A program made the translations under genes and the position numbers. Below are positions 1,135-64,000 of a stretch of 64,000 nt of DNA, in pieces. Positions within the stretch are counted from its first letter, which is position 1. The number at the start of each line of letters is the position of its first letter. This DNA comes from Bacteroidetes bacterium ADurb.Bin012. Its GTDB lineage: Bacteria > Bacteroidota > Bacteroidia > Bacteroidales > TTA-H9. The stretch is taken from assembly GCA_002071415.1 (NCBI GenBank), contig MWFC01000001.1, positions 1-64,000 of the forward strand, written 5' to 3'. The notes below the pieces were generated by a model. It saw only the letters and a list, made by a program, of their open reading frames with translations, was not told the origin of the DNA and searched no databases.

Positions 1135-1720
1135 AAATAAACATCTCTCTAATAGAGAATTACCACAGCACTTTTTGTTTTTCTGAAAATGGTTAGAATG
1201 AGCCAAATCATTATTATTGACAAGAGCTATTTTAAATGAATAAATTTTATAGTCAATGTTTCTTGATTCAAAAGAAGTAAGAAATATTTGGAAAAACGCC
1301 CAAAAAGTAGAAAAAGCTTGTATATTTGTGTTATGAATTCCTTATTTTGATTCTTAGAAAAAGCATCTATGCCCATGGGGCAAGTCTCTGATTTGTTTAC
1401 ACGGGCTTTCCTTCAGAGAGAAGCAATTAAGGAATGCTACTATTTCAAATAGAAACACAGGTTTTAATAAAGTTTAACTGAATTGGAAACTCTTCTCATG
1501 TATAGCGTAAAAGTTAATAGCTATCCTTTCATCAAATGGTTTAATTCTTTTGATGATAAGGTTGCCAGATTATTATTATGGCTACTGCATCCAATATAAC
1601 AAAACCCGAACGGTGTTGTGCGTCAGCTAATGAGATACAGAAAGATACTTTCTTATCGTTTTACAAATTAACATAATACATTAATTTAATTAACTTATTA
1701 AAATTTAAATTTATAACAAA
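1135..1720. other. 586-bp intergenic stretch without a recognisable gene
   Basis: AT-rich sequence between aroQ and the next gene. Neither strand has an ORF worth calling and I see no tRNA or riboswitch signature. The last 60 bases before 1721 are almost purely A/T, as is common for leader regions in this phylum. A TATATTTG octamer near 1320 fits a -7 box but has no correctly placed partner. Confidence 0.5.
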
Positions 1721-2131
1721 ATGAACAAAATAAAATTTTTATTAGTAGCAGTTTGTTGCATCACAGCTACTTTAGCTTTTAAGGATGCTTCAGCACAGAT
1801 AACGGTAGGTCCAGTTAATTTTAATTATTACATATCTGATCCTGAGGCCCCTCCAACTACAGAATATTCTGTTTATGCAGTCCTTGAGACAAGTGAGGGA
1901 AATCTCTATCCTATCCCTATAGGAGAAGTTACCGGCCAAGGGCTAAAATATTTACCACAAGTCATTAATTTTCCCGGGGTTGTTCCGCCCAATCCTATGC
2001 CAAGGTATCCTTATCGAATAATTGTTATGGTGTACAGAGGCAGCATTGTTCGTACAGGAGTTTCCGACTGGGCCAACGAAGAAGGCTTATACCCCTGTAC
2101 GCCTAATCCTATCAAAGTCCAGCAGTTTTGA
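1721..2131 (+). CDS. Small secreted protein of unknown function
   Basis: 136 residues starting with a clear signal peptide (MNKIKFLLVAVCCITATLAF, cleavage probably after ASA near residue 26). The mature part of about 110 residues is rich in Pro, Tyr and Val, lacks any motif I recognise, and contains a single late Cys. A strong terminator directly follows, so it is probably its own transcription unit. It could be a small periplasmic or secreted beta-protein. Codon use and the signal peptide make it a credible gene, but its function is unknown. Confidence 0.75.
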   Translation: MNKIKFLLVAVCCITATLAFKDASAQITVGPVNFNYYISDPEAPPTTEYSVYAVLETSEGNLYPIPIGEVTGQGLKYLPQVINFPGVVPPNPMPRYPYRIIVMVYRGSIVRTGVSDWANEEGLYPCTPNPIKVQQF

Positions 2132-2139
2132 TTAAATTT

Positions 2140-2176
2140 GCATTTCCCCGGCCTGTTCCGGGGAAATGCTTTATCT
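2140..2176 (+). terminator. Rho-independent terminator after the small secreted protein
   Basis: A perfect 12-bp stem, GCATTTCCCCGG / CCGGGGAAATGC, with a 6-nt loop is followed by TTTATCTT. It lies nine bases past the stop codon and 10-20 bases before the next ATG, so it separates two same-strand genes. Confidence 0.85.
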
Positions 2177-2186
2177 TAATTGAAAA

Positions 2187-3836
2187 ATGGAGCCTCACTA
2201 TAAAAAATCCTTACTTTTAGTCTTAGCCGTTCTATTGTTCCGATTAAACCTATTTTCCCAAAAAGAACTCGACATTTGGTATTTTGGAAACAAAGCCGGC
2301 ATTAGTTTCGTTAATGGAGGACCCATCGCATTATTGAATAATAATGAATTTATTCCTGGATATTCATCTACTATATCTGATTCCTCAGGAAATTTACTTT
2401 TTTATGGTCAAATTCGTTTACTAAACCGCAATCACACCTTAATGCCTAATGGTGATTTGGGAACTACGGGGGAGCATGGTATGATTGGTATTCAGACGAA
2501 AATCCCAGATACGATTTATTATATTTTTCATGTGGATGGTTTTGGATTTCCCAATCCATCAGTTCACGAAGGCTTGACCTATTCCATATTGAACATGAAT
2601 CTCGACAATGGACTGGGCGATATTGAACCCAGCAAAAAAAGTATTCCTTTATGTGGTGCATCACAGGCTTTTGGATGTATTACGGCTACTCGCCACAGCA
2701 ACAATCATGATGCCTGGATAATTTCGAGAATACATGATCCTGATTCGAATTTTTATGTATCCTATCTTTTGAATGATAATGGTGTTGTCGATCAGCCTGT
2801 ATTTAGCAATAGCGGGGTATTTCTGGATTATTCTATATCTACAATGATACAGGCCTTGAAAATATCCCAGGATGGGAAGCATCTGGTATGCTGCTATTCC
2901 GACAGGTTTGAGGTGTGCAGTTTCAATACTGCCACGGGTGAAATTCAGCCCAAGTTTACCATTATTCCCAGTTATATTCCGGTTGGTCCATGCTTTCCTG
3001 ATGATTTGGCCTTTTCGGTTGATGGCAAGTTTGTGTATGTTGCATGTCATTATTACTGTACTGCCATTTCAGGTTGTGCTGCTGTATTTCAGTACAACAT
3101 GGAGAGGGGAGATTCTCTGTCATTTAAAGATTCTGAAAAATTCATAGCCATTGGGTCATTAATGGGCATACATCTTGGTCCAGATAATAAGATATATGCT
3201 ACACAGACGTTTACAGATTCTCTTAGTGTTATTCATCATCCCTCTTTACCTGGTTCAGCCTGTCAGTGGCAAAAAAATTATCTCAGCCTGCGGGGAAGAC
3301 AATCAGGTGTAGGGCTTTCACAAGGTCTTCAACGTTACTTTGCCTATATTAATCACTCTGGGCAATGTCAAGGAATGCCGGTAAGCTTTTCACCCAACAC
3401 CTATCCAGCACCCGATTCGCTTTGGTGGAACTTTGGCGATCCCGCCAGTGGCTCTGCCAATACTTCTATAGATAGCACTCCTCAACATATTTACGCCAAC
3501 CCTGGTTCCTACACCATACAAATGATAGTAAAACATATTGACAATCGCTACGACACGGCCATATTTCATCTTTTCATTGAGCCTCAGCCCATCCCCAACC
3601 TTGGGCCGGATATTACAGTATGTGAAAACCAGGCAGTAATTCTGGATGCAGGCTACAACCCCGAATGGACATATTTATGGAATACAGGAGCTACATCGAG
3701 CAGCATAACTGTCGACACCAGTGGAACATACAGTGTTACCGTAAGTTCTCAAAGCGGCTGTTCGGGCAGCGATAGCATCAATGTATTTATTGGTCAAGGC
3801 ACAAAACCTCCACCCCGTCTCATCAAACACGATTGA
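2187..3836 (+). CDS. Secreted beta-propeller-like protein with PKD and Ig-like domains
   Basis: 549 residues. A signal peptide covers about residues 1-25 (ending NLFSQ). Next comes a family-typical start (WYFGNKAGISFVNG) and a region of about 350 residues with propeller-like repeats (SQDGKHLVCCYS, SVDGKFVYVAC, GPDNKIYAT). A PKD domain at about residues 395-465 (YANPGSYTIQMIV) and a final Ig-like domain with LGPDITVCENQ and WNTGATSSSITV follow. Proteins of this architecture are normally secreted by the type IX system and end in a sorting or gliding-associated C-terminal domain. Here the protein stops at the end of the Ig-like unit with no such domain, so it may be truncated or exported differently. 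Function unknown; extracellular adhesion or binding is plausible. Confidence 0.8.
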   Translation: MEPHYKKSLLLVLAVLLFRLNLFSQKELDIWYFGNKAGISFVNGGPIALLNNNEFIPGYSSTISDSSGNLLFYGQIRLLNRNHTLMPNGDLGTTGEHGMIGIQTKIPDTIYYIFHVDGFGFPNPSVHEGLTYSILNMNLDNGLGDIEPSKKSIPLCGASQAFGCITATRHSNNHDAWIISRIHDPDSNFYVSYLLNDNGVVDQPVFSNSGVFLDYSISTMIQALKISQDGKHLVCCYSDRFEVCSFNTATGEIQPKFTIIPSYIPVGPCFPDDLAFSVDGKFVYVACHYYCTAISGCAAVFQYNMERGDSLSFKDSEKFIAIGSLMGIHLGPDNKIYATQTFTDSLSVIHHPSLPGSACQWQKNYLSLRGRQSGVGLSQGLQRYFAYINHSGQCQGMPVSFSPNTYPAPDSLWWNFGDPASGSANTSIDSTPQHIYANPGSYTIQMIVKHIDNRYDTAIFHLFIEPQPIPNLGPDITVCENQAVILDAGYNPEWTYLWNTGATSSSITVDTSGTYSVTVSSQSGCSGSDSINVFIGQGTKPPPRLIKHD

Positions 3837-4037
3837 TTATAAACCAATAGAAAAAATTTTGTAGGCTATTCAAGCAAAAACGAATCGAATTTTTTTAAAC
3901 TCTATCGACATCAAATTAAATTTATTTATGAATATTATATTAAATAACAAAACAAAATTTATAAGATGTGAAATTTTTCTATTTATACATTATTTATGAA
4001 TACGAAACGAATCGATAAAATATGTTTTCGGGATATG

Positions 4038-6227
4038 TTAGTTTTGTTTTAAAAGAAGATGTTCATAGAGAAACTCAGTCATCAATGAATAGAGATGGTA
4101 TGTAGTATTTTTTCCAGTATAAATTCCGTGATTGCTGTCGGGATAATACATTGTTTGAAAATGTTTATTGGCATTAACCAGTGCCGAAACCATTTCAACC
4201 GAATTTTGAAAATGGACGTTATCGTCGGCCGTGCCATGTATCAGCAGATAGTTCCCTTTAAGTTTGTCGGTATAATGGATAGGAGAATTGTCGTCGTAGC
4301 CTTGAGAGTTGGACTGAGGTAATCCCATATAGCGCTCAGTATAGATGTTGTCGTAATATCTCCAGTTGGTAACTGGAGCTACAGCTATACCTGTAGTAAA
4401 ATAATCGGAGCCTTTGGTCATACACAGCGACGACATAAATCCTCCATAGCTCCAGCCAAATATAGCAATACGTGTAGAATCGGCTATTCCCGAACGAATA
4501 AGGTATTTGGCGAGCTCTATCTGGTCGTCGGTTTCATATTTCCCCAACTGGCTATAAGTCATTTTTCTGAATTCTTCTCCTCTGAAACCAGTTCCGCGAT
4601 TATCTACTGAAACTACGACTATCCCATGTAAAGCCATCATTTGATACCACAATCTTCCGCCTTCCCAATAATTGGTTACGGTTTGCGATCCAGGTCCTCC
4701 GTACAGATAAACCAATACTGGATAAGGCTGTTGAGTATTGAAATGGGGGGGCTTTATCATCCATCCATCCAAAGTAACTCCATAAGAAGTCGTAAAAGAA
4801 AAAAACTCCACAGGTTGAAGCTGATATTCTTTTGCTTTTTCGGTAAATCCCGCATTATTTTCGAGGATTCGGAGTTCTTTGCCTCTGGCATCGCAAATCG
4901 ACATGATATGTGGTGTATTGGCATCCGACCATCTTTTAAGAAAATATGTGTAATTTGGATTAAAGCTGGCCGTGTTATTTCCTGGCTGGCCAGCAATGAT
5001 TTTAAGATGCCCCTTAGTGTCAACTGTGCAGATTTCACGATTTAGCGGGCTGCTATAGGCTGCAGAAAAATAAACAAGCTTGCGGATAGCATCATAACCA
5101 ATGATATGATCTACTTCCCATTCTCCTATCGTAAGTTGTTTATTTAATCTTCCATCGGTTGAATGAAGATAAATATGGTTGTAACCATTTCCCTGACTCG
5201 TGATGAAAAATTGATTCCCATCAGGAGTAAACATGAGGTCGTCGGTTATTTCTATATAGTATTTGTTCTCTTCACTATAGATGATATTTCCTAATGCGCT
5301 AGAAGGATTATAAAGAAGAATCTCGAGATGATTCTGCAAGCGATTGAGGCGCTGAATGGCCAGCATACCTGAATTTCCAGCCCATTGCATGCGAGGTAAA
5401 TACTGATCGTTTTCTGAACCCGTATTCAATTTTAATGCTTTCTTTTCTTCAATGTTATAAACATAGACATCAACGATGGAGTTTTCTTCGCCAGCCTTGG
5501 GATATTTATAACAGTAATTCTCCGGATACAATTTTCCATATTTTGGGAAGCAATATTGTTTTACACGAGTTTCGTCGAATCGATAATAAGCTATTTTGCT
5601 GCCATCGGGCGACCAGAAAAATCCTTTAGTAAAACCAAATTCTTCCTCATACACCCAGTCGGTCGTGCCATTGATGATTTCATTGATTTTTCCGTCGGTT
5701 GTCAATGGCATCTCGCTTCCATCGTCCAGATTTTTAATAAACAGGTTGTTCTCTCTAACAAAAGCAACCTTACTGCCATCGGGTGAAAACTCGGCCAGCC
5801 GCTGTTGCCCCTTGTCCGACAAAGCACTCAATTTTTTTTGCTGTAGATCATAAATATAATATTTTGCATAATAAGAATGTCGGTAAATGGGTTCAATTGC
5901 CGTTGCAATCAGCATTTTTTTGCCATCGTTACTGAGGCTAAAATCTTCCATCGAAATTTTTTCGCCTTGCGCATCGAGCAGGTCTTTGAGAGCTATAAGA
6001 TAGCCAACATAAGCCCCAGTTTTGTAATCATAAATCTTTAAAGTGTCGTTTTCCTTTTTTAGGTAATTTTTTCCATCGTTTAAAGGGGTAATCCAGTAAG
6101 AACTTTTGGTTGCCAAACCTCGGTCCTTCAATATAGCATCGAGTGTAAGTTCTTTGGTTTGCGAATGTAGAGATTTCGATAAGGTAACCAAAACCACCAA
6201 AAACACAAGATAATAAAATTTTTTCAT
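4038..6227 (-). CDS. S9B dipeptidyl peptidase IV family protein
   Basis: 729 residues with a signal peptide (MKKFYYLVFLVVLVTLS) ending around HSQ. The N-terminal beta-propeller carries the substrate amino-end-binding Glu pair in WVYEEEFGF. The C-terminal alpha/beta hydrolase has the nucleophile motif GWSYGGF near residue 590, an Asp in HGTADDNVHF near 662 and the His in DSNHGIY near 699, so the triad is complete. Length is normal for the DPP IV family. It should be a periplasmic exopeptidase removing Xaa-Pro or related dipeptides from oligopeptides, as in peptide-fermenting Bacteroidota. It stands alone between convergent and divergent neighbours. Confidence 0.95.
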   Translation of the reverse strand: MKKFYYLVFLVVLVTLSKSLHSQTKELTLDAILKDRGLATKSSYWITPLNDGKNYLKKENDTLKIYDYKTGAYVGYLIALKDLLDAQGEKISMEDFSLSNDGKKMLIATAIEPIYRHSYYAKYYIYDLQQKKLSALSDKGQQRLAEFSPDGSKVAFVRENNLFIKNLDDGSEMPLTTDGKINEIINGTTDWVYEEEFGFTKGFFWSPDGSKIAYYRFDETRVKQYCFPKYGKLYPENYCYKYPKAGEENSIVDVYVYNIEEKKALKLNTGSENDQYLPRMQWAGNSGMLAIQRLNRLQNHLEILLYNPSSALGNIIYSEENKYYIEITDDLMFTPDGNQFFITSQGNGYNHIYLHSTDGRLNKQLTIGEWEVDHIIGYDAIRKLVYFSAAYSSPLNREICTVDTKGHLKIIAGQPGNNTASFNPNYTYFLKRWSDANTPHIMSICDARGKELRILENNAGFTEKAKEYQLQPVEFFSFTTSYGVTLDGWMIKPPHFNTQQPYPVLVYLYGGPGSQTVTNYWEGGRLWYQMMALHGIVVVSVDNRGTGFRGEEFRKMTYSQLGKYETDDQIELAKYLIRSGIADSTRIAIFGWSYGGFMSSLCMTKGSDYFTTGIAVAPVTNWRYYDNIYTERYMGLPQSNSQGYDDNSPIHYTDKLKGNYLLIHGTADDNVHFQNSVEMVSALVNANKHFQTMYYPDSNHGIYTGKNTTYHLYSLMTEFLYEHLLLKQN

Positions 6228-55517: not shown

Positions 55518-58500
55518 AAAGTCTTCTATTCCAATTTCTTATCAAACCACAACGGTCTGTCTCCATTCTTTTAGCGAATTCCCAATGTCTTCTATTCCAA
55601 TTTCTTATCAAACCACAACGCATGGTCGACACCTCTACAAGAGCGCATTAATGTCTTCTATTCCAATTTCTTATCAAACCACAACGGCATCGAAATGATA
55701 GTCATGCAAGGTCGTAATGTCTTCTATTCCAATTTCTTATCAAACCACAACAGATTCGACGAAATTGCGGACAATTCAGAAAATGTCTTCTATTCCAATT
55801 TCTTATCAAACCACAACGCAAAAGCACCAGCCGAGAAAGGAGGAGCGAATGTCTTCTATTCCAATTTCTTATCAAACCACAACGTGGAGGTGGAGGAGGA
55901 GGTGGTGGAGGCTAATGTCTTCTATTCCAATTTCTTATCAAACCACAACTGACAGTAAAATAACTCTACCGTTTTTTCAAATGTCTTCTATTCCAATTTC
56001 TTATCAAACCACAACCCGGCGGTGATTACATACCCACAGAAAGCCAATGTCTTCTATTCCAATTTCTTATCAAACCACAACGGTCCCAATAAAAAGTAAT
56101 CTTGCACCGAAAATGTCTTCTATTCCAATTTCTTATCAAACCACAACGGTGCACAGTGGGAAAAAGGAGTGACACAAAATGTCTTCTATTCCAATTTCTT
56201 ATCAAACCACAACGGTCATAGCATCGACCCACTGCTCGTATTTAATGTCTTCTATTCCAATTTCTTATCAAACCACAACGCTCTCTACGAAAGCCCAATC
56301 GTGTCGCAGAATGTCTTCTATTCCAATTTCTTATCAAACCACAACACTTTATCGCAAAGTGTCCGTACACCGATAAATGTCTTCTATTCCAATTTCTTAT
56401 CAAACCACAACCGCATGCTCCACCAACCATTCGTGTACCTCAATGTCTTCTATTCCAATTTCTTATCAAACCACAACAAACCGCTTTTTCTTCCTTGTCA
56501 AATTTCGAATGTCTTCTATTCCAATTTCTTATCAAACCACAACACGTCCCGGTTCATAAACGGACTATAAAGTAATGTCTTCTATTCCAATTTCTTATCA
56601 AACCACAACTACGATCGATGACGACTTTATTTATCCGAGTAATGTCTTCTATTCCAATTTCTTATCAAACCACAACGAGAGCCTGGAACGCAGAGAAAAA
56701 ATCCCAAATGTCTTCTATTCCAATTTCTTATCAAACCACAACTTAGAAGAGTTCCTTTTTTGCGTGACATAAAATGTCTTCTATTCCAATTTCTTATCAA
56801 ACCACAACCAATCATGGAATCAGTTTTTGGCGCAGGCAAATGTCTTCTATTCCAATTTCTTATCAAACCACAACTGGAGGAGGACGAAGTGCTGGATACA
56901 ACAAAATGTCTTCTATTCCAATTTCTTATCAAACCACAACAGTTGTTCATTAAGCGTTTCTGCGGCTTCTAATGTCTTCTATTCCAATTTCTTATCAAAC
57001 CACAACATAAGTTTTGCCCGACCTTGCCCCACCTTGAATGTCTTCTATTCCAATTTCTTATCAAACCACAACAGTGTTGCCGAGGGACTTACAGGTGCTT
57101 ATAATGTCTTCTATTCCAATTTCTTATCAAACCACAACATACACCGGTAGCAGAAATGCGGGAGCTAAAATGTCTTCTATTCCAATTTCTTATCAAACCA
57201 CAACTTAATGGATGAAGGGTTCGAAAAAGAGCTTAATGTCTTCTATTCCAATTTCTTATCAAACCACAACAAAGAAATATGAGCAGTGGGTAGATGCTAT
57301 GAATGTCTTCTATTCCAATTTCTTATCAAACCACAACATTTAGCGCTATATCTACGACAGCATCAGTAATGTCTTCTATTCCAATTTCTTATCAAACCAC
57401 AACAATAAATCAGAAATATCTGAAAATTGTGATAATGTCTTCTATTCCAATTTCTTATCAAACCACAACTATCCGTTGTTTGCTGATGCTATTGAGGAAA
57501 ATGTCTTCTATTCCAATTTCTTATCAAACCACAACTATCGTAGCATAGTCGCCGGTTTCCTCCGTTAATGTCTTCTATTCCAATTTCTTATCAAACCACA
57601 ACTATCGTAGCATAGTCGCCGGTTTCCTCCGTTAATGTCTTCTATTCCAATTTCTTATCAAACCACAACGGCGCATACTTTTATAATAATTCAATTGGTA
57701 ATGTCTTCTATTCCAATTTCTTATCAAACCACAACACCTCTACGTATTCGCCAAGGTCATTCCATAATGTCTTCTATTCCAATTTCTTATCAAACCACAA
57801 CAGAGTTGTCTTTAGATGGTATATAAGTGTTAATGTCTTCTATTCCAATTTCTTATCAAACCACAACATTATATTATGTGGGACAGGGATAGGTGTGAAT
57901 GTCTTCTATTCCAATTTCTTATCAAACCACAACGGGCGCTTTACCTACAAATTTAACATATTTAATGTCTTCTATTCCAATTTCTTATCAAACCACAACA
58001 CAGGCTTTATATTGTAATCCGCAAAAAATAATGTCTTCTATTCCAATTTCTTATCAAACCACAACCTACGTTATACGAGATTTTATAGCCATTAAAATGT
58101 CTTCTATTCCAATTTCTTATCAAACCACAACGGGCGCTTTACCTACAAATTTAACATATTAATGTCTTCTATTCCAATTTCTTATCAAACCACAACGAAA
58201 AATTAAATGACATTTTAACTGATATTAATGTCTTCTATTCCAATTTCTTATCAAACCACAACGTCCATTAAATTTTGCTATATAAATTAATTAATGTCTT
58301 CTATTCCAATTTCTTATCAAACCACAACAGCGAAAAATTAAATAAAAAAGGTTTTTTAATGTCTTCTATTCCAATTTCTTATCAAACCACAACTCTTTGC
58401 AGGACATTTATATAAACTAAAAGAATGTCTTCTATTCCAATTTCTTATCAAACCACAACATATTTTAAAAAGGTATTTCAGTATTTTTTAATGTCTTCTA

Positions 58501-58855
58501 TTCCAATTTCTTATCAAACCACAACTTCTAAAACTATAACTTGATCTTCGTTTTCAATGTCTTCTATTCCAATTTCTTATCAAACCACAACTATCAGGAT
58601 GGGTGCTTCACGGGGCTAAGTAATGTCTTCTATTCCAATTTCTTATCAAACCACAACCGCTGCACGATAATGATTTCTTAGCTTCTCAATGTCTTCTATT
58701 CCAATTTCTTATCAAACCACAACATTAAGCCTATTAAGGTGTATTCCTCTTCAAATGTCTTCTATTCCAATTTCTTATCAAACCACAACAGAACCTTTGA
58801 CGTATAAGGCAGTACCTTAAATGTCTTCTATTCCAATTTCTTATCAAACCACAAC
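55518..58855 (-). CRISPR. Type II-C CRISPR array, 51 repeats and 50 spacers
   Basis: Counting the repeat by its GTCTTC core gives 51 copies of a 36-bp repeat with a 66-bp period (spacers mostly 30 bp, a few 29 or 31). On the minus strand the repeat begins GTTGTGGTTTGAT and ends AGAAGACATT, the usual orientation of GTTGTG-type II-C repeats, so crRNAs should be read leftwards from the cas side. Copies are almost identical; the one at 55518 differs in its terminal bases, marking the old (trailer) end. The leader therefore lies next to cas2. Two spacers occur twice (57536-57566 and 57603-57633; 57934-57963 and 58132-58160). Confidence 0.99.
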
Positions 58856-58985: not shown

Positions 58986-59342
58986 TTAAAAAAATTCAAG
59001 TTGCCTTGGTCCTTCAGGTAAAAATTTTTCCGTTTTACCGAAAAAATTATAAATTTCACCATATTGCTTGTCGGTAACCATCAAGATACTTACTTGACCT
59101 TTTACCGGGATTATGCTTTTCACCCGCTTTACATGAACCTCGGCATTCTCACGGCTTGGGCAGTGCCGTGTATATACCGAATATTGCATCATATTGAAGC
59201 CATCTTTTTCCAGATTTTTGCGAAAGCGTGTAGCTTCTTTTATTTCTTTTTTAGTTCCTACGGGTAAATCGAAAAATACAAATAACCACATAACCTGATA
59301 TGCATTAAGTCGTTCAAATAATATCTCTAAAATGTATATCAT
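58986..59342 (-). CDS. cas2: CRISPR-associated endoribonuclease Cas2
   Basis: 118 residues. Cas2 core: WLFVFFDLPVGTKKE (metal Asp in FDLP), NMMQYSVYTRHCPSRENAEVH and IPVKGQVSILMVTDKQYG. An N-terminal stretch of about 17 residues precedes the usual start; a start at the Met at residue 18 (ATG near 59291) is possible, but the 4-base overlap with cas1 supports the longer form. Cas2 dimers bridge two Cas1 dimers in spacer acquisition. It is the last gene before the array. Confidence 0.95.
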   Translation of the reverse strand: MIYILEILFERLNAYQVMWLFVFFDLPVGTKKEIKEATRFRKNLEKDGFNMMQYSVYTRHCPSRENAEVHVKRVKSIIPVKGQVSILMVTDKQYGEIYNFFGKTEKFLPEGPRQLEFF

Positions 59343-60223
59343 TTAAAATCAGGGAATGACAGCTTCCTTTGTTTTCCACCATAGCATCTGGCAAGTGAGG
59401 CACTCGATTGCTGCATGGCTAACATAAGCGGCCTCGTAGTCTTTTCCAAATTTACATCTCGTGCTAACAATTGAATAGCCATCTGTTTAAATTCTTTATC
59501 GGGTTCAGGTTTATCTGTTTTATACCAAACCTCATAAACCAATTCATCTACATATACTCGATAGGGTTCCATCATATCGTCGGCAAGACAAAATGCGTTA
59601 TAGCGATTGCTATGGAATATTCCAAGAGTTGAAAGAAGGCCGGAACCAGCCAATGCTCGAGCCATTGCTGAACGAATGATAATGTAACCATAATTTAGCA
59701 ATGAATTGGGTGGTGGCCCAAAACGGTCGCGTATAAAACCCGATCCCCACAGCTCATGCCAGTAATATTTTGCCGCTAAAGCTTCCCTATTGCTCGTATC
59801 GCCACTCATAACTTCATTGGCAAAAATCTTTAAAGGCTGATCATTTTTATTTAATTTATGTAATAAGGCAGCCTGGTTTCGGATTTTGCAAGTAATGACA
59901 TTTTTCCATAAATTTTTTTTTAGAGGTTCGGAAGCTTCTATCTGAGTATGAAAAATTTCGGTTTGGACCTGATTACTGTCAAGGTTTAGCAACATGCCGG
60001 TAGGCAAATATTTTTCGTCGCAAAAAATAATTGCCGCGTTATTCGAATTTAAAGCCGTAATAAGTTGCACGCTTATCGTTACATAACGATTTTCGATTAT
60101 CAAATAGCCTATGTCTTCGATAGGTGCAGTTTTTTTAATTCCTTCCTTATCGGTAAAAACTAATTGATTATTATTCAAGTTTAAATGCCCTGCATTCTGT
60201 ATGCAAAGAGTGCGCTTTATCAT
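59339..60223 (-). CDS. cas1: CRISPR-associated endonuclease Cas1 (type II)
   Basis: 294 residues, typical for type II-C Cas1. Metal-binding residues are visible as Glu in NREALAAKYYW, His in GIFHSNRYNAFCLADD and the acidic residues in DDMMEPYRVYVDELV. Cas1 integrates spacer DNA into the leader end of the array. It overlaps cas9 by 4 bases and cas2 by 4 bases, so the adaptation genes are coupled to the effector. Confidence 0.97.
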   Translation of the reverse strand: MIKRTLCIQNAGHLNLNNNQLVFTDKEGIKKTAPIEDIGYLIIENRYVTISVQLITALNSNNAAIIFCDEKYLPTGMLLNLDSNQVQTEIFHTQIEASEPLKKNLWKNVITCKIRNQAALLHKLNKNDQPLKIFANEVMSGDTSNREALAAKYYWHELWGSGFIRDRFGPPPNSLLNYGYIIIRSAMARALAGSGLLSTLGIFHSNRYNAFCLADDMMEPYRVYVDELVYEVWYKTDKPEPDKEFKQMAIQLLARDVNLEKTTRPLMLAMQQSSASLARCYGGKQRKLSFPDFK

Positions 60224-63200
60224 TTAATAATCTTATTAACAGTACCATCCATATTTATTTTTACTTTTATGGGTTGGTGCCTTTCCCAACTTCTTAAACT
60301 TTGTATTCTTAATTCTTCCTCGGGATTCTTAATAGTGGAAGCCAAGTGATGCCTGAATGTCAGGAAAATTCCTCCTTCTGTTGATGATATCTTCTGCACA
60401 CGGTATAAATATTTGCTTAACTCTTCATAGGGGATTTTCATATCTTCGGATATATCGGAGGCATAAAGATAATTAAATATGAACATATCGTTTTCCTGCA
60501 CGGTGGCAATTATTTGTGAACCATCAGGCGGAAGCTGATATAATGGCTGTTTGTGACGCAAGCGATTTACAGCATCCCAAAACTTGACCATCTCAAATTT
60601 TAGATTCCCTTCTACATCTTTGTAAATAATGCAATGATGATTATTTCTGGGATCAACATAGCAATTTATATTTGGCTTTAATTTAACAGCATTTCCCTTA
60701 TATTCAAAAATTCTAACTGTATATACAGGAACAGGATCACCTCCTTTGCGATTTGGAAGCCGTATAGCAGGATTTTTATCCTTATCGAAAAAGAAGCCAT
60801 TTGGGATATTATAAGGTTTTGAAATATCGATATTAAATACATTTTGAAGTCGGTTTTCAATTAGCTTCTTAATAGTAGTATCAACGATTTTCGCTACGTG
60901 TTTATGATCTTTTATTTCGGTAATATTACATCTTACATGATATTGTTGTGGTTTAATACCTGGTAGATATTTAGCAGCCGATACTATTTTACCTTCTCCC
61001 TGGTCAAGAATATAACCTCCATAGAATGTATCTTTGTGAAGTTGCCCTTTTACCGAATATCCTTTGGAAACATAAGTATCATGATTTTTACGAATTCTCT
61101 TATAAACAGGCACCAAAACTCTATAGTTAGTTCGATAAGATACCAAAATTTTTGAAATTGCTTCTTTTACAGCATTTTGAAAGTGTGGGTTAGGTTGTTC
61201 GAATTTGGGTTTTGGAGCCAAATTACGTTGTTTATTTTTGAGATTACCAAAATAAGTAGATAGTTTTTGATAGTAACTTGTAGTAGCAGAAGCAATTACA
61301 ATGGCGTCAATGGCATGATGACGCTGGTCTTCACGATTTTTCTTCGGATCAATAATAATTTCTCCCGTCTCGGTATCCACCCTAATCAAACTTTCAATTA
61401 TTTTTTCGTTATTATTTTTATCGATAATGGGCTTAGGATTTTCAATAGGTTGAAAATTAATGATTTCCTGTATTTTAAAATAAATAAAGTAACGCCCTGG
61501 TGCAACATCGGCTTTTAATTTCCAATTGTAGTCCATATCGGGACAAAATATGCCCTGGCTATCCACAGTTCCATTTAGTGTATAATAGTTTTCAGGAGGA
61601 CGAGGTAAATTAAGTGCCGGTAAAAAATCAGCATTATTTACATCAAAGTCTAATAATGCAGTATAAAACCCGTTGATTAGTTGAGCTTCACAGGAATAAA
61701 TGGATGATATAAATTTTTGATTTGAAACTCTACCTTGGATGCTTATTTTATTTTCATTCTTTCTATTATCATTAATATCATTTTGTTTGATTTCAGCTTT
61801 GATTACAGGAATTATAGCCCAATAATATCCATCTTCTATTATTTTGTTCGTATTGAAATTAATTCCATGACTTTCGTTAATGAATCTTTTTTTCTTGAGA
61901 TTACCCTTAATAATTATTACATTTTCGCTAATTTGGGGTTGAGGAGTAAACCTTGGAATGAATTCCTGTGCAGCCTGAGCTTTTATAAAGGCCCAATATT
62001 TCCCAGTTTCAAAGCCATTTGCAGGAATTTTTAGTGAGGCATAGTATTTACTATCTGATTCAAAATAGAATTTATTCCCAGTCTCTTTTTTTATTTCACC
62101 AGGTATGGCTAACTCATTATCCATTGGTATGGGTTTGAAATTTATTTTTGGGATGGCTTTTTTAACATGATTGTTTTCATCAACGATAAGATAATGAATA
62201 GTTGGTTCGCTTTCGTTTATATTTAAATCATTCAAGGGAATATCGGTTATAGGTTCACTAAGAATATCGTTTAGTCCCCATAATCGGCGTAAATCGGCTA
62301 TAAGTTGGCCAGGGAATGACCTAACGTCGTCGCATATTTCCCTTAAGATTTGTACTGATTTTTTGCTGATATAACGTGTGTCGTTGAGTTGTCGTTGAAT
62401 AAAATCGTCAAGCATAGCGGGTTTTTTTGAAGTAAAACGCCTTGCTTTTTTATAGGGCAAGATTTGGAAGACTCTTTGCTCGATTTCTTCCCATGAATCA
62501 GCATTCCATAAAGATTTACTACTGTTTTTTAAATAAAACTGATAAGGTGTCAATTCACCTTTCGAACGATTGAAATTGGCTTCACATAGAGTTTTATTTC
62601 CGAATGAATCGTCTAAACTAACGGAATAGGGTATAATATGTTCAATTTGGAAAAAATTATGAGGCCCAAGCAAATCGGAAAGGCGAATGGTTTTACCCGT
62701 ATAGGGACAGATTACGATACCATTTTTCTGTTCGATTTCACTATAAAGTAGATACTTAATGATGTTATCACGTGAAGGTTTTAAGCCTGCTTCAATGATT
62801 CTTTCGCGAGCTTCCTTATTTTTTTGTTCATTAATTGCATTTTCTTTTCTGATTTCCTGTCGCCTTTTTTTATTGTTTTTCAAATCGCGTCCAACCTCAA
62901 CATGGATGCGATCAAAACAGAAATCTGGCCCAAATTCGGGCATACTACGATATTTTTTCAGTAGATAATTTACGAGCCGGCGCATTTCATTTAGCCCAAT
63001 TTGGACAAGTGGATTTCTTAAATTCTCGACAGGTGAAATGTAATCTCCCTTTTTCTCTGGACCTACCTCCCGACTGGGATGGTATAATTTTAAAAAGGCT
63101 TTATCATTAGGGTTAAATCCAAAATTATTAACAGTGCTCGAAAGGTATTCTTTTATATTCTGAATAATTTCGCCTTCATGATATTTTTTGCCATTGCAAA

Positions 63201-64000
63201 GATCTTTGATAAATTGTTCTATATCACTATGATAATCTTTAAAATATTCCCATCTGCTGCCAAAAGTGTTTTTGATCCCTCCAAGCAAGACGGCTTGTTG
63301 AAAAATAAATCCCTTTTCAAGGAAAGGCAGTATGTTATGAATAGCTTTTAATGAGATTGATGCATACCCATCTTCAAGTGTAATTTTTGCGCTTTTTTGG
63401 GCTTTTTCTTCAGTGAAATGGTATTTTTTTATGAGCCGTTGGGTCAAAAGTTCTTCATCTTCAAAAAACATGAAATCATGCCATATTTCATGTTTATTCT
63501 GCACCCATATCTCAGTAGGAAACAAACTTTTTAATTTTTTTATAGTAGGACATCCAGAAACTTTTTGGTCTGCATCGTAATTGAAATATTCATTTTGCAG
63601 CTTTAAGGCATCAATAATAACTTTAAAGTCGAAAACTTTATCCTGATATGATATTACATTTAAAACAGTTTGCCGCTGACTAGCATCAAGCGGTTGTTCC
63701 TTTCGACCGTATCGTATATTATTTATCAATTGCCATGCTCTATATAGTTCGAAATCAGGATGAGAAATTGGACAAGGGGTAGGCCCGGTTTCTATCCATT
63801 TGTTGGTAGTTTTATCAAACATTATTCTCTTTTCGAAAGTACATTTTGACAAAAGATGTTTTTGTGATCTTAATGGCCGTTGCCAGAATAAAAGACTATC
63901 CTGACTTCTATATAATATTTCATGAGTTTCGTCATTAATTTCGATTCGTCCCCCAAAAAGAGTTTTTAAGGAGATCTGTTGTGCAACTTTTATGGTTTTC
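60220..64000 (-). CDS. cas9: CRISPR-associated endonuclease Cas9 (type II-C), N-terminus beyond window
   Basis: About 1,259 residues are visible; the frame is open at the right edge, so RuvC-I and part of the bridge helix/REC lobe are missing. The TTG at 63852 is not the start: upstream codons continue the Cas9 sequence (LFWQRPLRSQKHLL). RuvC-II is IHVEVGRDLKNN, the HNH nuclease (62560-62661) has FQIEHIIPYS, NKTLCEAN and NRSKGE, and RuvC-III (61303-61320) is HHAIDA. Between HNH and RuvC-III lie about 300 extra residues (61340-62265); the His-to-His distance is 440 residues, against 143 in S. pyogenes Cas9 (H840 to H983). The C-terminal part (wedge/PAM-interacting) is intact to the stop codon. 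Confidence 0.96.
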   Translation of the reverse strand, partial: KTIKVAQQISLKTLFGGRIEINDETHEILYRSQDSLLFWQRPLRSQKHLLSKCTFEKRIMFDKTTNKWIETGPTPCPISHPDFELYRAWQLINNIRYGRKEQPLDASQRQTVLNVISYQDKVFDFKVIIDALKLQNEYFNYDADQKVSGCPTIKKLKSLFPTEIWVQNKHEIWHDFMFFEDEELLTQRLIKKYHFTEEKAQKSAKITLEDGYASISLKAIHNILPFLEKGFIFQQAVLLGGIKNTFGSRWEYFKDYHSDIEQFIKDLCNGKKYHEGEIIQNIKEYLSSTVNNFGFNPNDKAFLKLYHPSREVGPEKKGDYISPVENLRNPLVQIGLNEMRRLVNYLLKKYRSMPEFGPDFCFDRIHVEVGRDLKNNKKRRQEIRKENAINEQKNKEARERIIEAGLKPSRDNIIKYLLYSEIEQKNGIVICPYTGKTIRLSDLLGPHNFFQIEHIIPYSVSLDDSFGNKTLCEANFNRSKGELTPYQFYLKNSSKSLWNADSWEEIEQRVFQILPYKKARRFTSKKPAMLDDFIQRQLNDTRYISKKSVQILREICDDVRSFPGQLIADLRRLWGLNDILSEPITDIPLNDLNINESEPTIHYLIVDENNHVKKAIPKINFKPIPMDNELAIPGEIKKETGNKFYFESDSKYYASLKIPANGFETGKYWAFIKAQAAQEFIPRFTPQPQISENVIIIKGNLKKKRFINESHGINFNTNKIIEDGYYWAIIPVIKAEIKQNDINDNRKNENKISIQGRVSNQKFISSIYSCEAQLINGFYTALLDFDVNNADFLPALNLPRPPENYYTLNGTVDSQGIFCPDMDYNWKLKADVAPGRYFIYFKIQEIINFQPIENPKPIIDKNNNEKIIESLIRVDTETGEIIIDPKKNREDQRHHAIDAIVIASATTSYYQKLSTYFGNLKNKQRNLAPKPKFEQPNPHFQNAVKEAISKILVSYRTNYRVLVPVYKRIRKNHDTYVSKGYSVKGQLHKDTFYGGYILDQGEGKIVSAAKYLPGIKPQQYHVRCNITEIKDHKHVAKIVDTTIKKLIENRLQNVFNIDISKPYNIPNGFFFDKDKNPAIRLPNRKGGDPVPVYTVRIFEYKGNAVKLKPNINCYVDPRNNHHCIIYKDVEGNLKFEMVKFWDAVNRLRHKQPLYQLPPDGSQIIATVQENDMFIFNYLYASDISEDMKIPYEELSKYLYRVQKISSTEGGIFLTFRHHLASTIKNPEEELRIQSLRSWERHQPIKVKINMDGTVNKIIK

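What the first reader, a model, noticed from the sequence alone, without database searches (positions are those of the whole stretch)
61340..62265. Cas9 with a large insertion of four similar beta-rich units between HNH and RuvC-III
Seen directly: the catalytic HNH His and the RuvC-III His are 440 residues apart. Known: they are 143 apart in S. pyogenes Cas9 (H840, H983) and about 144 in S. aureus Cas9 (H557, H701). The extra 300 residues contain about four units of about 40 residues starting near residues 588, 643, 701 and 755 (counted from the TTG at 63852). Each has a short strand like IIIKGNL / SIQGRV / TLNGTV, a variable middle, then a GYYWA / GFYTA / GRYFI strand. Inference: a tandem beta-domain array has been inserted at the HNH-RuvC linker, which moves during target cleavage. 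It could bind nucleic acid, another protein or an anti-CRISPR, or change PAM/target checking.
Basis: partly seen in the sequence, partly recalled or inferred. Interest (0 to 1): 0.75.

Follow-up and report, generated by a model that had tools for sequence, protein, structure and literature searches.

The report
Cas9 clade with beta-repeat insert
This bacterium's Cas9 carries an extra domain of about 310 residues, built of repeated beta units and inserted right beside the RuvC cutting site; it is a real and conserved hallmark of one branch of Bacteroidota Cas9s that none of the searched family libraries, solved structures or held papers describes, and what it does is still to be tested.

Summary
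The full Cas9 (1543 aa, starting outside the window at 64851) has 440 residues between HNH H738 and RuvC-III H1178. About 309 of them (862-1170; window 61342-62268, minus strand) are an insertion inside the RuvC-III subdomain, where ThermoCas9 has two adjacent residues. The insert holds four full, mutually homologous beta units plus half a unit at each end, probably a split fifth. It occurs in one Cas9 clade: 26 further sequences from Bacteroidales-type genomes, including Odoribacter laneus, always 297-326 aa. A tree built without the insert puts them in a single clade. The nearest relatives have short loops there (138-153 aa His-to-His); one sister has a 74-aa linker. No Pfam, NCBIfam, PDB-sequence or Foldseek match, and no homologue outside Cas9, was found. 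The array abuts the K-x-R motif corresponding to SpCas9 K974/R976, which contact the non-target strand. It is net acidic, unlike the basic rest of Cas9. Best reading (architecture shown, function inferred): an intrinsic beta arm at the RuvC mouth that tunes non-target-strand handling or HNH/RuvC conformation. Catalytic residues, cas1, cas2, a 51-repeat array and a tracrRNA candidate are present. New variant of a known kind.

The parts
60220..64000 (-). cas9, residues 285-1543 plus stop; the gene continues outside the window to 64851
   Evidence: Open frame of 1543 aa with no stop; TIGR01865 E 2.8e-150
61342..62268 (-). Inserted domain, residues 862-1170
   Evidence: Residues 861 and 1171 align to adjacent residues 710 and 711 of ThermoCas9 9ar4; insert length 297-326 in 27 clade members
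62125..62268 (-). N-terminal linker and C-terminal half of a unit (U0), residues 862-909
   Evidence: Joined with the half after U4 it matches U4 at 86% and U3 at 80%, U1 and U2 poorly
61939..62124 (-). Beta unit U1, residues 910-971
   Evidence: Profile-profile and AF2 strands
61759..61938 (-). Beta unit U2, residues 972-1031
   Evidence: Profile-profile and AF2 strands
61597..61758 (-). Beta unit U3, residues 1032-1085; best conserved full unit
61420..61596 (-). Beta unit U4, residues 1086-1144; most acidic unit
61342..61419 (-). N-terminal half of a unit (U5), residues 1145-1170; as conserved as HNH
   Evidence: 66% mean identity in the clade
62542..62709 (-). HNH nuclease core, with H738 and N761
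   Evidence: PF13395 over its cut-off
61102..61341 (-). Rest of RuvC-III, residues 1171-1250: K-x-R motif then HHAIDA with catalytic H1179 and D1182
   Evidence: PF18541; residues read; motif census
59339..60223 (-). cas1, type II
   Evidence: TIGR03639 299.7 bits, PADLOC Cas1_II
58986..59342 (-). cas2
   Evidence: TIGR01573, PADLOC Cas2_II
55518..58855 (.). CRISPR array, 51 copies of a 36-bp repeat, spacers about 30 nt

Best explanation
Shown: in one clade of Bacteroidota type II-C Cas9s a domain of about 300 residues is inserted inside RuvC-III, directly before the K-x-R motif that leads into the catalytic HH-x-x-D. It consists of four full homologous beta units plus half a unit at each end. 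[quoted passage not shown] It is not a nuclease. It probably grew from a short loop through a longer linker to the present fixed array.
For: Position: the insert ends at K1171-x-R1173, which corresponds by motif to SpCas9 K974-x-R976 (numbering checked). K974A and R976A impair non-target-strand but not target-strand cleavage, and both residues are modelled contacting that strand near the RuvC site (PMC5680257). K-x-R is kept in all 27 clade sequences scored. Constant length of 297-326 aa and no loss in the clade imply function. U2 and U3 (40-43% mean identity) are better conserved than U1 and U4 (31-32%), and the last half unit (66%) is as conserved as HNH, as expected for an arm fixed to RuvC with a contact further out. 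Nuclease residues are intact. The neighbouring Cas1 need not be special: the window's Cas1 pairs, 97/87, with the Cas1 of G005, whose Cas9 lacks the insert. No extra accessory gene is shared by all loci.
Against: No experiment. The correspondence to K974/R976 is by motif, not by superposition. Constant length and conservation fit protein docking equally well.
Confidence: 0.4

Rival explanations
1. Docking platform for another protein: Cas1-Cas2 during spacer capture, or an unlinked host factor.
For: Acidic, conserved, all-beta repeat domain without catalytic motifs; distal units U2 and U3 are the better conserved full units.
Against: Cas1 phylogeny does not follow the insert: bearers are split into several groups and the window's Cas1 is closest to one serving an insert-free Cas9. 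No third gene is common to the loci. Known partner PcrIIC1 binds the C-terminal helix of its Cas9, a different place (PMC13153721).
Confidence: 0.25
2. Structural decoration or stability module with no specific regulatory role.
For: Other long Cas9s of the order gained length at other places; units evolve faster than the nuclease domains.
Against: Fixed unit number and length across a deep clade, no loss seen, strong conservation of the last half unit.
Confidence: 0.15
3. Shield against anti-CRISPR proteins that target HNH or RuvC.
For: Bulky domain near the nuclease sites; known AcrIIC proteins bind HNH of other II-C Cas9s (PDB titles).
Against: No direct evidence; a shield under attack would be expected to vary more in its surface and length than seen.
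Confidence: 0.12
4. Extra nucleic-acid-binding domain for the displaced strand, flanking duplex or guide RNA.
For: Site beside the non-target strand; U2 is mildly basic, mean +2.5.
Against: The whole insert is net negative in 25 of 27 sequences, mean -1.9 per 100 aa against +3.9 for the rest of Cas9; no nucleic-acid-binding family or fold recognised.
Confidence: 0.08

Closest known systems
Odoribacter laneus YIT 12061 Cas9 (L031, NZ_JH594596.1) and the other clade members L029-L048
   Same: Same insert, same site, same number of units, 45% identity over the whole protein
   Different: Nothing in kind; the window's protein is a divergent member with 30-37% identity in the insert. No characterisation was found in the held papers
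ThermoCas9 (PDB 9ar4) and Nme1Cas9 (6jdq), type II-C
   Same: RuvC, HNH and RuvC-III align on both sides of the insert
   Different: No insert: residues 710 and 711 of ThermoCas9 are adjacent where this protein has about 309 residues
CbCas9 with PcrIIC1 (PDB 8iyq, 8wr4), a Bacteroidota Cas9 of 1442 aa
   Same: Best fold match of the 954-residue model; long Bacteroidota II-C Cas9
   Different: About 42 residues at this site (chain 986 to 1028); its extra length lies elsewhere and its partner binds the C-terminal helix (PMC13153721)
G042 Cas9 (L051/L112, 1209 aa)
   Same: Sister of the clade, support 87; 74-aa linker at the same site
   Different: At most one unit, and that only suggestive (47% to a U1/U2 window, 0.1% to the joined end halves)
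Engineered domain-inlaid Nme2Cas9 base editors (PMC10874451)
   Same: A foreign domain placed in a Cas9 surface loop near the displaced strand, protein stays active
   Different: Artificial and enzymatic; whether any of the eight sites is this loop was not established

Membership tests
Cas9 (type II effector) | RuvC-I/II/III and HNH with catalytic residues | tested here: met
   D8, E652, H738, N761, H1179, D1182 present; TIGR01865 502.7 bits
CRISPR subtype II-C | cas9, cas1 and cas2 only, without csn2 or cas4 | tested here: met
   cas9-cas1-cas2-array; the gene upstream of cas9 is an unrelated ORF
CRISPR subtype II-C | tracrRNA with anti-repeat | tested here: inconclusive
   Candidate at about 65004-65092 plus strand: partial anti-repeat match and terminator-like hairpin, fold z -2.8; no Rfam hit, expression not tested
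PcrIIC1-associated Cas9 (CbCas9 type) | pcrIIC1 gene in the locus | tested here: not met
   No third gene in the window's operon
Insert as an ordinary, characterised Cas9 region | Same segment in a solved Cas9 | tested here: not met
   No PDB sequence match to the insert at E up to 10; profile search gave one chance hit, eS17 E 0.06
Any known domain family | Pfam, NCBIfam or PHROGs match to the insert | tested here: not met
   Only the RuvC_III tail and Cas9 models recur; PHROG 32621 hits are one motif of about 14 residues
Beta-propeller or other known beta-repeat fold | Fold match to solved structures | tested here: not met
   Foldseek PDB best E 0.15, all TM-scores below 0.2. A single AF2 model from 20 related sequences, so a weak negative

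The most novel reading that the evidence does not exclude
A natural Cas9 lineage evolved a new fold at the RuvC mouth: a closed five-unit beta ring (the half units at the two ends completing one unit, both ends returning to the same loop), amplified from a single linker unit, that gates the non-target strand and so sets the timing or proofreading of RuvC.
Probability: 0.2. Interest if true: 0.75.

Novelty: new variant of a known kind. Interest (0 to 1): 0.55.

Why it matters
It defines an unannotated, clade-wide structural variant of Cas9: a natural domain inserted beside the residues that feed the non-target strand to RuvC. If the domain tunes that step, it is a natural model for controlling strand cleavage and specificity, and its site is a naturally permissive place for engineering. 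The series short loop, 74-aa linker, full array also offers a case of how a new repeat domain can grow inside an enzyme core. The question is directly testable with one deletion mutant and one structure.

Tried and rejected
HNH-RuvC linker (L2) as host site: rejected, the insert is downstream, within RuvC-III. Common trait of long Bacteroidota Cas9s: rejected, others of 1367-1567 aa have 163-198 residues between the His residues. Homologue outside Cas9: none at E 0.001 in a phylum sample of 396 genomes, none in phage records; the PHROG hits are a short motif; the G129 hit is a short frame with a stop, taken as chance. Beta-propeller: suggested by half units at both ends but without Foldseek support. 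Dedicated Cas1 partner: not supported. G042 linker as one ancestral unit: only suggestive. PAM from spacers: an array search of phage records gave three chance-level hits. A genome-contig scan with the single sequence found nothing; the alignment-based scan found 20 loci. Viral-model fold search of the insert: nothing.

Full report
OBSERVATION. The Cas9 frame runs off the window. In the assembly it is 64851-60223 on the minus strand, 1543 aa. HNH H738 and RuvC-III H1178 are 440 apart; by homology with SpCas9 H983 the catalytic His is the next one, H1179. phmmer against ThermoCas9 (9ar4) aligns residue 861 with 710 and residue 1171 with 711, so residues 862-1170 (window 61342-62268) are a clean insertion. 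Matches to plasmid-borne Cas9s mostly stop at about 863-866 too. The site is inside RuvC-III, after ...GQLIADLRRLWGLN and before KNREDQRHHAIDA; it is not in the HNH-RuvC linker.

REPEATS. With 20 clade members aligned, four full units U1-U4 (residues 910-971, 972-1031, 1032-1085, 1086-1144) match each other in all six profile-profile pairs at 96.9-98.4% (E 1e-10 to 1e-15). Column-shuffled units gave at most 8.4% and other Cas9 segments at most 1.0%. Half a unit precedes U1 and half a unit follows U4. Joined, they match U4 at 86% and U3 at 80%, but U1 (16%) and U2 (1%) poorly, so a split fifth unit is likely but less certain. Orthologous units share 32-43% identity on average, units within one protein 23-27%. 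The array therefore arose before the clade spread and the units then specialised.

FOLD. AF2 on residues 854-1183 with 20 sequences gives an all-beta model, pLDDT 83.3, pTM 0.67. A 954-residue model shows the same strands at lower confidence (pLDDT 68.7, pTM 0.35). Foldseek finds nothing for the insert in the PDB (best E 0.15) or among viral models, whereas the larger model finds Cas9s. Pfam, NCBIfam, PHROGs and PDB sequence searches give no family for the insert. Because both ends return to one loop and the half units sit at the two ends, a closed arrangement is attractive; that is inference, and no propeller was matched.

DISTRIBUTION AND ORIGIN. A scan of named genomes found 20 Cas9 loci, among them Odoribacter laneus, Prolixibacteraceae, Marinilabiliaceae and Paludibacter; 18 are read across the insert and L047 ends before it. 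The insert is 297-326 aa in 27 sequences. In the window's order 60 of 149 sampled genomes have Cas9; three of them, the window's included, hold the full insert, and a fourth (G074) shows its end at a contig edge. In a phylum sample of 396 two have it. Other Cas9s of the order have 163-198 residues between the His residues even at 1367-1567 aa. Trees built without the insert put all bearers in one clade (SH-aLRT 99). Next come G042, with a 74-aa linker (support 87), and then Cas9s with short loops of 138-153 His-to-His. The G042 linker resembles one unit only suggestively (47% to a U1/U2 window, 0.1% to the joined end halves), so growth from one unit is a working model, not a result.

CONTEXT. 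cas9, cas1 and cas2 lie together, followed by a 51-repeat array. A tracrRNA candidate, with anti-repeat and terminator-like hairpin, lies outside the window at about 65004-65092 on the plus strand. All expected catalytic residues are present. The Cas1 tree does not follow the insert: the window's Cas1 is sister (97/87) to that of G005, of the same family, whose Cas9 lacks the insert. Exchange of cas9 beside cas1 is described for Flavobacteriales (PMC12669027).

MECHANISM. Position is the strongest clue. K1171-x-R1173 corresponds by motif to SpCas9 K974-x-R976 (numbering verified; motif census). In SpCas9, K974A and R976A affect non-target-strand but not target-strand cleavage, and both residues are modelled hydrogen-bonded to that strand by the RuvC site (PMC5680257). 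The array is therefore rooted immediately before the residues that take up the non-target strand. Its net charge is -1.9 per 100 residues against +3.9 for the rest of the protein; U4 is acidic and U2 mildly basic, which disfavours a general DNA or RNA grip. U2 and U3 (40-43% identity) are better conserved than U1 and U4 (31-32%), and the last half unit (66%) is as conserved as HNH, which fits an arm fixed to RuvC with a contact further out. I favour an intrinsic arm that tunes non-target-strand loading or the HNH/RuvC arrangement (0.40), over protein docking (0.25), decoration or stability (0.15), an anti-CRISPR shield (0.12) and nucleic-acid binding (0.08). The architecture is shown; every statement about function is inference.

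NOVELTY. Searches of the held open-access library gave no description of this insert. Subscription papers are not held, so an unseen description is possible, and the O. laneus sequence itself is public. The protein is a Cas9 by every tested criterion; the insert is new relative to the libraries searched. Hence: a new variant of a known kind.

Noticed in passing
L029, L032, L036, L039, L040, L045, L048, L109, L110, between cas9 and cas1: Many loci of this clade, not the window's, carry a small ORF with HFH/HVH motifs like REP-associated (Y1, IS200-like) transposases between cas9 and cas1. Of three scanned only the L039 one passed the Pfam Y1_Tnp cut-off, barely.
   Followed up: partly
L035 (+631), L037 (+517), L048 (+596) after cas9; L032 (+326): Three loci share a 217-218 aa protein without a Pfam match downstream of cas9; L032 has a DUF6261 protein in the same place.
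   Followed up: partly
L042 around 4329-4331: This insert-bearing cas9 is split by a single in-frame stop; the frame continues on the other side. Pseudogene or sequencing error, not resolved.
   Followed up: no
   Followed up: partly
L111 (G673) 1536-6062: Most divergent insert found: same site and layout, 326 aa, on a long branch for both Cas9 and Cas1.
   Followed up: partly
window 55518-58855: Array of 51 near-identical repeats; no spacer matched a held phage record beyond chance.
   Followed up: partly
L014, L071-L073, L076, L077, L079, L080: Another group of Bacteroidota Cas9s in the order is about as long (1470-1567 aa) but has only 192-198 residues between the His residues, so its extra length lies elsewhere.
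   Followed up: no
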